Shown: piece after piece, positions 4,081-64,000 of the stretch
How the letters are laid out: the number at the start of each line of letters is the position of its first letter
Numbering within the stretch: position 1 is the stretch's first letter
NCBI GenBank assembly: GCA_963971285.1
Contig: OZ020260.1
Location: 11,442,798-11,506,797 of the forward strand
Reading direction: 5' to 3'
Length of the DNA: 64,000 nucleotides
From: Astropecten irregularis
Taxonomy: Eukaryota > Echinodermata > Asteroidea > Paxillosida > Astropectinidae
Notes under the pieces: model-generated
What the model saw: only the letters and a program-made list of their open reading frames with translations
Told to the model about the DNA's origin: nothing
Database searches by the model: none
Program-made: the position numbers and the translations under genes

Positions 4081-7000
4081 TCAGCATGCTACGATGAATG
4101 GATGCTTCAGGGCTTCCTCGGCAGAAATCCTCATCTTGGGGTTCAGGTCCAGGAGCCTGCTCAGGAGATCATATGCAGAGTCCGGAATGCGGTCCTTCCC
4201 CGTTGCTCTCGCGGCTGCAGAGGGCGGGCTTCTCGATGACGGCTTTCGTTTGCCCTGCAGTGACCCCTTAGGGGAGGTGTTCGGGGTTGTGACATCGGGG
4301 GACGCCCGTGGCTGGTTTTCAAGACTTTGCCGCCTCGTCTTCCTCTGGGTTGGTTGTTGTTCCTTGGAGGGTGGTGAGCTCAACTTGCAGCGTTTGGCTG
4401 ATGGTCTTGGGGAGCTGCTGGTGGCTGACTTCCGCAGTTGAATGCACATTTTCTTCAGGTCCATGGCCGGCAGTTTGACGTCACAGGTTATTTCTTTGCC
4501 TAGAGAAACCAGAAAACATTCGTCAGAGATTCAGCCGAATAGCAGGACTTCTGAGGGGCAGCAAGGCAATTATCAGGCGCAGCAACGTAGTGATCAGGAG
4601 TGTCAAGGCAGTGACCAGGGACACTAAGGCAGTGACCAGGGGCACTAAGGCAGTGACCAGGGGCACTAAGGCAGTGACCAGGGGCACTAAGGCAGTGACC
4701 AGGGGCACTAAGGCAGTGACCAGGGGCACTAAGGCAGTGACCAGGGGCACTAAGGCAGTGACCAGGGGCACTAAGGCAGTGACCAGGGGCAATACTAAGG
4801 ACAACAGACATACACCTAAGTTGCTCATCGTGTTTGAAACCTATACACCATAGCAATCATAAGCCGCACTGCACCAGTTGCCTTTGTCAAAACGTTGAGC
4901 TTTGGCATTGAGGAAAGATCCCCTTACCGTATTCCCGGGCAGCTTGTTTCATCTCTTCGGTTCCTACGATACTCATGATCTGTGCCAGTGCTGTCATATC
5001 GTCCTCAGCCTTGAAGAACGGATACCGACCGCTCAGCACGGAGAGCAATATAACTCCAGCTGCCCACATATCAACGGCTAGTTGGATAAAAAAGAGAAAA
5101 GGACTATCATGACTTAATTTCGACTTTCAAGATGAGACAATGTAACAGGAAAGTTATATAAGTTCAAATTGGGCTTCGTATTTTCAGCAAGTGTAATTGA
5201 AGCTTTGTTTTCAATTTGAAATCGGGGAATTTTCGAACCTGTAGTCTGATCCGGACATTTCAGCAAGACCTCTGGTGACCTGAAGCCAGGGGTGCCTGCC
5301 CTGGGTGCAGCCTGGCCACTCCGGGACGTGCACACCCCGCAGACTTGCAGCCGGCCGAAACAGCCGCAGGTCTTGGCGGTGGCGGCGGACGTCCGCCGGT
5401 CAGAGCCAAGCCTCACGGCTCCTGCCCGGGACTGTTGGATGGTTTTGGCGTTGGTGTTGGACTTGTTAGCGACTGCCGTCTTCTGGTTGAACGTCTTCGG
5501 CATCTGGAAGGTCTTGGCAAGGGGCTGCCCTTTGGGTTTATGAGGTTCAGTGCGGTTGATGAAGGTGTTTGGGTCGAGCTCTGCCAGTCTTGAGATGGAA
5601 TCGGACGGAGGATGCTTGGCTTCTGTCTTCCTCTCATTTACAGATGAAACCTGTGGTCCAAAAAGTACCAATCCCATCAGATCTTCTAATACTCAAAGTA
5701 AAAACTAGGTCCTGTACAGGATGACGGGTATTTGGACAGGTGAACTTGTTCAACAGAAACAAGGGGATATAAGAGGAGCACGATTCCTCTGTCTGTTATC
5801 TGGATTGAATTCAGCTGATGCTGTTTTGAAGAACATGAGACAGACACTCTAAGATTGACAAATGTGCTTGGTCAACCCTAACCATCCCAAATACACAAGA
5901 ATCCATTCTCTGGTCCTGTTTCATTTTCACCGGCTTGGGATGGACAGAGTTCAGGCGCTGTCACATCGCATGAGGCTTCCATGCCCAACTTGACTCCAAG
6001 CACAGAAGAATGTACCCTTGGGGTCCTGCTGTGTTGATTTGACCATATTAAGGAAAGTACAAGGCCCAAATACTCGAGTTGGGTTAAGGATAGCCACAAA
6101 CAGACAAACTGTTCAACCAACCGACCGTCAAACGCAACTCACCGGTTTGGGCAAGACAGGCAGAGTTCTGTGAGGTCTTCGCATTGATGAAGGCAATGTC
6201 TTGGATTGCAGATGAGATGGAACTGTGGAGCTCTTATCAGAGGACGGCACCTTCTGGGCCAGGCCAAAATCAACAAGCGCATACCTAAAATGGGAAAACA
6301 AGAACAAGAATTATTCAACATACTACATGTATTGTACTTTCAGTACCATACGTGGCAAGTGCGTTAGGCACTCGCCTCTCACCAATGTGGCCTGGGTTTC
6401 TATCCCGGCTTGGGTCATATGTGAATCAACTCACTTCTGAAGTGCTCGATTGCAGAGGAAGTTGCTGGGTTTGATGTCCCGATGGATCACGTCAAACCGG
6501 TGCACCCGTCGCAAAGCCAGTAGAAGGTTACGCATGTACTCGCGCATTTCAGCCACCGACATCTTCCTTACAAACACCTGTGGACAGACCAAAAACACGG
6601 GACGGGTTACCGACCGATTCTTCATACAGATTATATAACTTGCGACTGAAACTCACGTGGCTGTTATGAACAAATCTGATAAGTCAAGCAGATCTTTGTC
6701 AAAGGACAAATGGGCCAAGTCTCCCTGATCTGCTTAAGCACACAAATGCTGCTTAGCAAACTTTCATGCTGTGCCAAAGAAAAATCACCAGGACACCAGT
6801 TAATTACCATCAATCAATGTGTATCAAATGGGATTGTAGCTGGTAGCCCGTGTTTCTTATTGTTAATCTGGTTAATGTTGTATACTTACGTGGAAGCTGT
6901 CGTGCGGAAAGTACGGCATGACAATCACCACGTGGTCTCGCTCTCGTAGACTCAACTTCATCCCCATGACATTCTCAATTCCTCTGTGGGAAAGTAACGG

Positions 7001-8683
7001 ACACAGCTTAAAAATCACCCAAAATTGTCAACTGGAGGTCAGAATTTGTACGGAAGAGTTCTATGAGTAGTCAGAGCATGCAGTAGTCATCCATTGCACA
7101 CTTGGCAGTTGTCCAAGGCATTGTTTTCATTTCATTATGATCCTTGGGACCTCTGAGCCAATATCTACCCTCAACAGAAGAGTAGGGGTAATATACGGTA
7201 TATTACCCCTTTTTTGACATCGATTTGAAGGACTTAGCTTGTTTTGCCAAACATTCAGCACCTCTTATTTAGCACTACAATGGACAAATGAGATTCTGAG
7301 AAGAACGGATATACCGATGTACTCAAAGTTTTGGAAACAGTATGCTCCAACTCACAAAAAGGATTATATGTACATGGTTCCCTGCAAACTATTCTTTTTA
7401 AGTCTCAACTGTTCTGAAAAATCTTGCGTATATTTGACAAAATCGTTGTGGATATTTGGGGCCATTACCCAATTTTGTGAAGGCATTGTAGTTCTCCCAT
7501 AATCCTCTCTGGGTGGCTTGTTGGTATTATGTGTTTGAGAGCAAATTTCTGCTTGACGTCCGGTCCGCAAGAATTGACCTCGGCCATATAGACTGAGCTA
7601 AAGGTTCCTGTACGAAAAAAATAAATAAAAAATAACAGCAAAGTTCAAACGCAGAAGTTATATAACCAATATGCGAAGTTGACCAAACAAGACAAGGACT
7701 CTCTATTTACCTTCTCCGATTTTGTTGATGATATTGAACGTTTTGGCGACCTTTGGCACATAACTCAGAAGTCGATCGATCTCAGCTCTCACATCATCTG
7801 AAACATACAAACAAACAGATACATGTTAACAAACAAATATCATAGGATCACATATACATATCACATATATAGGATGCTGTACAAAACAAGACCTAATAAG
7901 TATGTGGATCGGTTTGCGGAAACACCATGTAATAATCGTTCGTACTTTCGCACTTCTATATCGTTCGCACTTCACACAATTAGGTCTCAACATTTCGACT
8001 AACCGTTAGTCTGCTCTAGTCCTCATCAGGAGACAATAATAATATCAGTGTTTGTAAACTTGGGGACCCCCTGTGTTTTTATCACATGCCTGAATGAATT
8101 ACCGTGGATTCGTTCCGTGGCGCATGCTGTGCGTATGATAAAAACACAGGAGGGTCCCAAACTTTACAATTGCTATAAAACAGGAAAGTGAAACTTCAAA
8201 TTTAAATCTGAATTCCGATTTTTTGATTTAGATTTTAACTCAGAATTTCAGATTTTTTGTACACCTGCTCTGTACTACAGTAGGCTTATACTAGGAACTT
8301 TTAAATTTCAGCTTGCTCCTTAGTGTTTTCAGATTTTTTGTTTGTGTGGCCACTCACATCCCTGATAATATCCAAGACCAAGTTCATACAAATCTTGTCT
8401 CAGAATAAAGTGGAACTGTCCAAACACCTCTGATACCTCCAACTTCCAAGTTTGACCAAAAATTGCCTGGGGAAAAAATGTCTTCTCTTTCACCTGAGAT
8501 TGCATTGGGACTATCTGTGAAGGAGTGCCTCTTCCTCTTTCTAGCATCACTGGTCCTGGGGGCTGTAGGGGTACAGGGAATCTCGGCAATGACGTCAGTG
8601 TTCATGTCGTGCATGCTACCGACACTGACTGACATGATTGATCCTGTGGTACTCCCCTCGATGGCAACCACTTTGGCCGTCAT
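4081..8683 (-). CDS. CDC7: CDC7-like serine/threonine kinase, nine coding exons
   Basis: Catalytic subunit of the Dbf4-dependent kinase, which phosphorylates the MCM helicase to fire replication origins in the nucleus. Exons in coding order: 8437-8683, 7711-7797, 7469-7607, 6890-6983, 6435-6577, 6143-6284, 5239-5650, 4928-5077, 4081-4499. Every junction is GT-AG, phases match, and the sum is 1833 bp (610 aa; human is about 574). Visible motifs are the glycine loop GEGTFSSVY (residues 110-118), FALKH with the ATP lysine (136), HRDIKPSN (221-228), VDFGLAQ (DFG 242-244), and GTPGFRSPE with SPE in place of APE (409-411). About 165 residues separate DFG from SPE, the long activation-segment insert typical of CDC7; another insert follows in the last exon before the final lobe [12 protein letters not shown]. 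The start has an in-frame stop just upstream. Exon 1 (residues 1-82) is the least certain part because it resembles no conserved domain; its donor AG|GTATCA was chosen because it restores phase. Confidence 0.93.
4605..4795. repeat. 21-bp minisatellite in CDC7 intron 8
   Basis: About nine near-perfect tandem copies of GGCAGTGACCAGGGGCACTAA. The unit is a multiple of three and lacks stops in several frames, which creates long spurious frames on both strands. It lies in the 428-bp intron between CDC7 exons 4928-5077 and 4081-4499. Confidence 0.95.
7185..7211. repeat. Near-perfect short palindrome in a CDC7 intron
   Basis: GGGGTAATATAC and its exact complement GTATATTACCCC are separated by one base, within the intron between exons 7469-7607 and 6890-6983. 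Function unknown. Confidence 0.7.
8043..8172. mobile_element. Foldback element
   Basis: GGGACCCCCTGTGTTTTTAT near 8053 is mirrored by ATAAAAACACAGGAGGGTCC near 8137, giving about 30-bp arms around an 80-bp spacer. It lies in CDC7 intron 1. A related arm occurs near 9748. Confidence 0.65.
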
Positions 8684-63659: not shown

Positions 63660-64000
63660 GTGAATTCCTGGATAGGCCTACTAGTACTACACTTGTTAGC
63701 TGCTTATTTCATATTAAAGATTTAGTAGATAAATATTAATCTGAAATGAAATTATGTTAGTAAATAGTAGATGAAATGAGCGCAACCCTTGGTCCTGGTG
63801 CTATTATGGGCCTGTCAGGCTGTCACCATGACAGAACAAGACTTATGGGGCCAATTTCATAAAACTGTTCAGCACAACAATTTGCTTAGCACAAAAAAGT
63901 CTCGCCCAATAAAACAAACCACCATTGAAAATTCCATTTGATATTCATTGTCAGAGAACAACAGCCAAAGAACAATCACAAGTGATAAACAACACGCGGA
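63660..64000 (+). mobile_element. SLC39A7 intron 1 start, containing MITE copy 3 (cut by the window end)
   Basis: From 63846, GGGGCCAATTTCATAAAACT, GTCTCGCCCAATAAAACAAA and GAACAACAGCCAAAGAACAA match the element at 27745-27977. The right end lies outside the window. Confidence 0.8.

What the first reader, a model, noticed from the sequence alone, without database searches (positions are those of the whole stretch)
4081..64000. Compact block of genes whose human relatives mark the MHC and its paralogons
CDC7, WDR46, SAPCD2-like, MIGA and SLC39A7 lie within 60 kb. From general knowledge, human WDR46 and SLC39A7 are both in 6p21.3 (extended MHC class II), SAPCD1 is in MHC class III, SAPCD2 and MIGA2 are on 9q34, and MIGA1 and CDC7 are on 1p. 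6p21, 9q34 and chromosome 1 are MHC paralogons. One invertebrate locus holding all of them fits a pre-duplication proto-MHC neighbourhood, here without any immune gene.
Basis: partly seen in the sequence, partly recalled or inferred. Interest (0 to 1): 0.75.

Follow-up and report, generated by a model that had tools for sequence, protein, structure and literature searches.

The report
Sea-star stretch of ancient MHC-neighbour genes
Five ordinary housekeeping genes whose human relatives lie in and around the immune (MHC) region and its duplicate regions sit side by side in a sea star; the three that could be followed often share a chromosome in other invertebrates too, so this looks like a well-preserved piece of an old animal chromosome rather than a hidden immune locus.

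Summary
The window is from a sea star near Patiria and Acanthaster. It carries CDC7 (-), WDR46 (+), SAPCD2-like (+), MIGA (-) and SLC39A7-like (+, cut by the window end), each above Pfam's curated cut-offs. A six-frame Pfam scan adds only a class A GPCR and one low-complexity hit; no immune domain.

Linkage is old. With contig length as a chromosome tag, CDC7 and MIGA share a contig in 14 of 18 species (echinoderms, molluscs, an annelid, a nemertean), CDC7 and WDR46 in 8 of 14. They are apart in amphioxus, two sea cucumbers, one bivalve, the vertebrates compared and some short-scaffold assemblies.

So this is a piece of an ancestral bilaterian linkage group. Neighbours all mapping to the paralogons is what conserved chromosomes predict, not evidence of a special proto-MHC; PMC8302630 calls the wider proto-MHC chromosome an artefact. 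The one extra feature, WDR46 and SLC39A7 35 kb apart here and 55 kb apart in a bat MHC, may be chance. Flanks could not be read (genome search did not complete); SAPCD2 and SLC39A7 linkage elsewhere was not tested.

The parts
4081..8683 (-). CDC7 kinase gene, start codon at 8683, stop at 4081; modelled exons 7711-7797, 7469-7607, 6890-6983, 6435-6577, 6143-6284, 5239-5650, 4928-5077, 4081-4499; first exon by tblastn near 8489-8683, its splice site not modelled
11357..27556 (+). WDR46 (Utp7/BING4) gene; coding exon 11357-11590, then exons from 18029 to the stop at 27556; start codon not found, and the 12-base exon 27291-27302 in my model is a guess
29674..51315 (+). SAPCD2-like gene: exons 29674-30451, 33637-33782, 43471-43626, 44288-44389, 46790-46939, 51178-51315; an undetected exon is possible
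56091..61876 (-). MIGA (mitoguardin) gene, 11 exons, 541 aa
62867..63659 (+). SLC39A7-like ZIP zinc transporter, first exon only; the end is a candidate donor site, the gene continues beyond the window
61877..62866 (.). 990-bp divergent stretch between the MIGA and SLC39A7 start codons, candidate shared promoter
   Evidence: distance; shared promoter is inference
8684..11356 (.). divergent stretch between CDC7 and the first WDR46 coding exon found, at most 2.7 kb; probably holds the WDR46 start

Best explanation
The window is an ordinary stretch of a sea-star chromosome that descends with little exchange from one ancestral bilaterian chromosome. That ancestor carried CDC7 and MIGA (shown by linkage in Ambulacraria and Spiralia), very likely WDR46 (linked to CDC7 in echinoderms, two hemichordates and one brachiopod) and probably SAPCD and SLC39A7 (inferred from this window alone). 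In the vertebrate lineage the same chromosome was copied by two rounds of genome duplication; its copies became parts of human 6p21, 9q34, 1p and 19p13, where WDR46 and SLC39A7 survive on 6p21, CDC7 on 1p, and the MIGA and SAPCD families keep two copies each (established knowledge and recall, not tested here). The genes do unrelated housekeeping work (replication start, ribosome assembly, spindle orientation, mitochondria, zinc export from the ER; recalled); nothing seen here suggests that they work together or in immunity.
For: Gene identities. Same-contig test (tabulated): MIGA and CDC7 on one contig in 14 of 18 species entered for both; counting by hand from that table only invertebrates with both genes on contigs over 10 Mb, 13 of 15. 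WDR46 and CDC7 in 8 of 14; MIGA and WDR46 in 6 of 9 (the 3 misses are fish). All three share one contig in Patiria, Acanthaster, Asterias, Amphiura and Antedon. CDC7-MIGA linkage occurs in both Ambulacraria and Spiralia, so it predates their split. Echinoderm chromosomes match ancestral groups almost one to one (PMC11175523) while gene order within such groups is scrambled (PMC7269912) (passages). No immune domain found in the window.
Against: MIGA and CDC7 are on different large contigs in Branchiostoma lanceolatum and Solemya velum, and WDR46 and CDC7 in Apostichopus and Holothuria, so the group is not intact everywhere. In Anneissia, Mizuhopecten, Diadema antillarum and Saccoglossus some pairs lie on different short scaffolds, which says little. 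Flanking genes were not seen. That the two genes of a pair come from the same assembly is assumed from their naming. Paralogues of MHC genes are also scattered over essentially all human chromosomes (PMC1309616), and several of the human positions used are recalled.
Confidence: 0.85

Rival explanations
1. A true ancient micro-cluster (compatible with the best explanation, but stronger): these genes have stayed within tens of kilobases since the bilaterian ancestor, perhaps held by shared regulation, and mammalian WDR46-SLC39A7 proximity is its remnant.
For: WDR46 to SLC39A7: 35 kb here; 55 kb in a bat MHC map (WDR46 575753-582904, SLC39A7 638121-640599; PMC5437515). WDR46 and CDC7 share a 0.83-Mb scaffold in Lingula, MIGA and WDR46 a 1.58-Mb scaffold in Anneissia. 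Two divergent gene pairs here.
Against: The genes between differ completely (five in the bat; SAPCD2 and MIGA here), and the two genes face each other in the bat but point the same way here. CDC7 is on another scaffold in Anneissia. Amphioxus and sea cucumbers break pairs of the set. With about ten framework genes near WDR46 in mammals, one lying close by on a conserved chromosome by chance is not rare (my rough estimate, several per cent, from assumed gene numbers; not computed by a call).
Confidence: 0.15
2. A functional proto-MHC: the locus is the pre-duplication form of the immune region, with immune or stress genes in the flanks.
For: Two members are extended class II genes in mammals.
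Against: No immune or classical framework domain found in the window; PMC8302630 holds the hypothesised proto-MHC chromosome to be an artefact of later fusions (passage); flanks unread.
Confidence: 0.07
3. Coincidence: unrelated genes brought together recently in sea stars.
For: Amphioxus and sea cucumbers keep some of them apart.
Against: Shared contigs for CDC7-MIGA in both Ambulacraria and Spiralia, 13 of 15 large-contig invertebrates (hand count).
Confidence: 0.03

Closest known systems
Ancestral (bilaterian/chordate) linkage groups, conserved macrosynteny
   Same: Genes keep chromosome membership across phyla while order is lost (PMC7269912, PMC11175523, passages)
   Different: Nothing in kind; this is one short stretch of one such group, seen in a sea star. 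Which named group was not determined
Human MHC paralogons (6p21.3, 9q33-q34, 1q21-q25/1p11-p32, 19p13)
   Same: The five genes' human relatives fall in 6p21, 9q34 and 1p (6p21 from papers, the rest recalled)
   Different: One unduplicated copy; no MHC, complement, TAP or proteasome domain and none of the classical framework genes found in the window
Amphioxus 'primordial immune complex' model with rxr, notch, pbx, brd, psmb5,6,7-like and c3-like genes (as summarised in PMC10751288, passages)
   Same: Invertebrate deuterostome relative of the same paralogy group
   Different: None of those genes found in the window; Branchiostoma lanceolatum has MIGA and CDC7 on different contigs
Mammalian extended class II region (WDR46 to SLC39A7)
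   Same: WDR46 and SLC39A7 within tens of kb
   Different: The five genes between them in the bat (B3GALT4, RPS18, VPS52, RING1, HSD17B8) were not found between them here, and the relative orientation differs

Membership tests
Ancestral linkage group that gave the MHC paralogons | CDC7, MIGA and WDR46 on one chromosome in other deuterostome phyla and in protostomes | tested here: met
   MIGA-CDC7 14 of 18, WDR46-CDC7 8 of 14, MIGA-WDR46 6 of 9; misses in amphioxus, two sea cucumbers, one bivalve, short-scaffold assemblies and vertebrates. Met for pairs; all three together were seen only in echinoderms, since WDR46 and MIGA were not both listed for any hemichordate or spiralian
Ancestral linkage group that gave the MHC paralogons | SAPCD2 and SLC39A7 on that same chromosome elsewhere | not tested
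Ancestral linkage group that gave the MHC paralogons | Flanking genes enriched for 6p21/9q34/1/19p13 | not testable with these tools
Proto-MHC / primordial immune complex | Framework genes RXR, NOTCH, PBX, BRD, PSMB or C3-like in the locus | tested here: not met
   six-frame Pfam scan of the whole window finds none; flanks unread
Proto-MHC / primordial immune complex | Together in amphioxus | tested here: not met
   Branchiostoma lanceolatum MIGA and CDC7 on contigs of 23,752,511 and 31,719,604 bp; the other genes could not be compared in one amphioxus species
Conserved microsynteny with mammalian extended class II | WDR46 and SLC39A7 close together | tested here: inconclusive
   35 kb here against 55 kb in bat, different genes between and different relative orientation; no intermediate species could be read

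The most novel reading that the evidence does not exclude
CDC7-WDR46-SAPCD-MIGA-SLC39A7 is a bilaterian micro-cluster that the sea star keeps nearly whole, of which mammals keep WDR46 and SLC39A7 in the extended class II region; amphioxus, the usual stand-in for the pre-duplication MHC, has broken it, so echinoderms and spiralians would be the better models of that ancestor.
Probability: 0.15. Interest if true: 0.5.

Novelty: new member of a known kind. Interest (0 to 1): 0.3.

Why it matters
It places CDC7 and MIGA beside two extended class II genes in an unduplicated genome. The same-contig data indicate that CDC7-MIGA linkage, and from one brachiopod CDC7-WDR46 linkage, predate deuterostomes, so human 1p22-31 and 6p21 (positions partly recalled) would share ancestry for these genes. 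It argues for reading 'proto-MHC' blocks against the background of conserved whole chromosomes, and for using echinoderms and spiralians, not only amphioxus, as outgroup.

Tried and rejected
Scaffold extension with the genome search (own genome) was tried 16 times with the same request and never answered. PDB did not help for SLC39A7 (three hits, best E 0.11, histidine-rich or chance) and gave only a weak APC match for SAPCD2 (E 0.029). Literature: searches for the gene set and for proto-MHC, paralogons, linkage or microsynteny showed, judged by titles and starts of abstracts in the listings, no report of this block in an echinoderm; two searches listed only 15 of 49 and 15 of 36 papers. The library lacks most subscription papers. 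The MIGA tree (window plus 24 hand-picked of 120 listed proteins) puts the window gene with Patiria and Acanthaster (93/90, short of the tool's star) inside asteroids (100/100); the tool warns of long branches, and no row is labelled vertebrate MIGA2, so it cannot time the vertebrate duplication. The Trypan_PARP hit is taken to be a simple-repeat artefact (not checked further).
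Full report
What is there. The window is eukaryotic (39.9% GC; one 200-base N gap at 26951-27150). Five genes were rebuilt. CDC7 runs on the minus strand from an ATG at 8683 to a stop at 4081; the join of its first exon was not modelled. WDR46 runs on the plus strand from 11357 to 27556; its start codon was not found and one 12-base exon in my model is a guess. A SAPCD2-like gene has six exons found between 29674 and 51315, carrying the SAPC2 N-terminal domain and the Suppressor_APC domain. MIGA is complete, 11 exons, 541 residues, minus strand, 61876-56091. 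SLC39A7 begins at 62867 and leaves the window. The introns that were modelled carry GT and AG at the joins. Pfam and PDB matches are listed in the observation check. SLC39A7 is named from its Zip domain plus recalled sequence; its relative SLC39A13 was not excluded by a tool.

Which animal. The closest MIGA proteins are Patiria miniata (83%), Acanthaster planci (81%) and Asterias amurensis (76%); brittle star, crinoids and urchins follow at 52 to 42%. WDR46 and CDC7 give the same ranking (79, 77, 73% and 69, 67, 64%). The MIGA tree puts the window with Patiria and Acanthaster, support 93/90. It is a sea star, most likely a valvatid (order recalled), and not one of the three named species.

Anything else. 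A six-frame scan of the whole window with stops read as X (alignments A1-A3) found, at E<=0.001, only domains of the five genes, one class A GPCR (7tm_1) whose frame is at 13110-14009 between the first two WDR46 coding exons found, and one low-complexity hit. No MHC, complement, proteasome, TAP, RXR, NOTCH, PBX or BRD domain was found. The scan caught each of the five known genes by at least one fragment but not the WD40 repeats of WDR46, so diverged or short-exon genes could escape it.

Is the linkage old? No animal genome could be opened, so I used a side column of the protein search: the length of the contig on which each protein lies. From (MIGA; WDR46; CDC7), tabulated: MIGA and CDC7 agree in 14 of the 18 species entered for both; the four misses are Anneissia and Mizuhopecten (short scaffolds), Branchiostoma lanceolatum and Solemya velum (large contigs). 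WDR46 and CDC7 agree in 8 of 14; the misses are Anneissia, Diadema antillarum and Saccoglossus (short scaffolds), Apostichopus and Holothuria (large contigs) and a frog. MIGA and WDR46 agree in 6 of 9, the misses being three fish. For one pair or another, agreement covers sea stars, a brittle star, crinoids, two hemichordates (Ptychodera, Glandiceps), a brachiopod (Lingula, one 829-kb scaffold), bivalves, a limpet, an annelid and a nemertean; all three genes were compared only in echinoderms, of which five have them on one contig and Anneissia has MIGA and WDR46 together and CDC7 on another scaffold. Each search lists only its best 120 hits, rows without species or contig were dropped, and vertebrates were entered only in part. 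With an assumed one-in-eleven chance of sharing a chromosome, 13 of 15 large-contig invertebrates for MIGA-CDC7 has a binomial probability of 2.5e-12; species are related, so this is only a guide. The occurrence in two deep branches, Ambulacraria and Spiralia, is the real evidence.

What it means. Chromosomes of amphioxus, echinoderms and molluscs preserve ancestral linkage groups, with gene order scrambled within them (PMC7269912 and PMC11175523, passages read). If the MHC paralogons are copies of such a group, a run of neighbours mapping to 6p21, 9q34 and 1p is the expected look of any stretch of that chromosome. This base rate is argued from those papers; I could not measure it on this chromosome. 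It does not single out a proto-MHC locus. PMC8302630 (passage) goes further: the hypothesised proto-MHC chromosome joining MHC, NKC and LRC is, in its reconstruction, an artefact of later fusions. PMC10751288 (passages) describes the invertebrate stage by rxr, notch, pbx, brd, psmb5,6,7-like and c3-like genes; none was found in the window. PMC1309616 names the four paralogous regions but notes that paralogues of MHC genes are also scattered over essentially all chromosomes, a caution against reading much into five genes.

What is left over. WDR46 and SLC39A7 lie 35 kb apart here and 55 kb apart in the bat MHC (PMC5437515, table passage), with wholly different genes between and a different relative orientation. 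This could be ancient micro-linkage or chance; no intermediate species could be read. Two gene pairs are divergent: MIGA and SLC39A7 with 990 bp between start codons, and CDC7 and WDR46 with at most 2.7 kb.

Literature. Full-text searches, judged by their listings, showed no description of this block in an echinoderm. The library lacks most subscription papers, among them those on amphioxus and placozoan proto-MHC regions that I recall, so this is not a claim of priority. No paper was read whole; those cited were seen as passages.

Noticed in passing
window 13110-14009 (+): Class A GPCR reading frame (7tm_1 1.9e-26; best PDB match 5-HT2B, 6e-19) between the first two WDR46 coding exons found; a plausible N-terminus with a start codon lies in another frame just upstream, so it may be a pseudogene, spliced or misassembled.
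   Followed up: partly
window 11017-11090 (-), 16039-16111, 22728-22800, 52224-52296 (+); also 19399-19469 (-) and 26744-26816 (+): Four ARAGORN tRNA-Thr calls are 79-94% alike over 126-169 bases, beyond the tRNA itself, and two more weaker copies exist: a tRNA-Thr-derived SINE family rather than tRNA genes.
   Followed up: yes
window 47995-48095 and 49969-50383: Two arrays of 33-base repeats (85 and 89% matches) that look related by eye, in the last SAPCD2 intron, with open frames in several frames on both strands at the second.
   Followed up: no
window 25396-26138 and 58839-59228: Long minisatellites (13/65-base and 36-base units) inside WDR46 and MIGA introns.
   Followed up: no
window about 50496-50838 (+): Reading frame resembling the end of a non-LTR retrotransposon reverse transcriptase; judged by eye only, no Pfam hit at E<=0.001.
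   Followed up: no
Branchiostoma lanceolatum, Apostichopus, Holothuria (protein hits): Amphioxus separates MIGA from CDC7, and two sea cucumbers separate WDR46 from CDC7, although spiralians mostly keep MIGA-CDC7 and two hemichordates and a brachiopod keep WDR46-CDC7: possible lineage-specific translocations.
   Followed up: partly
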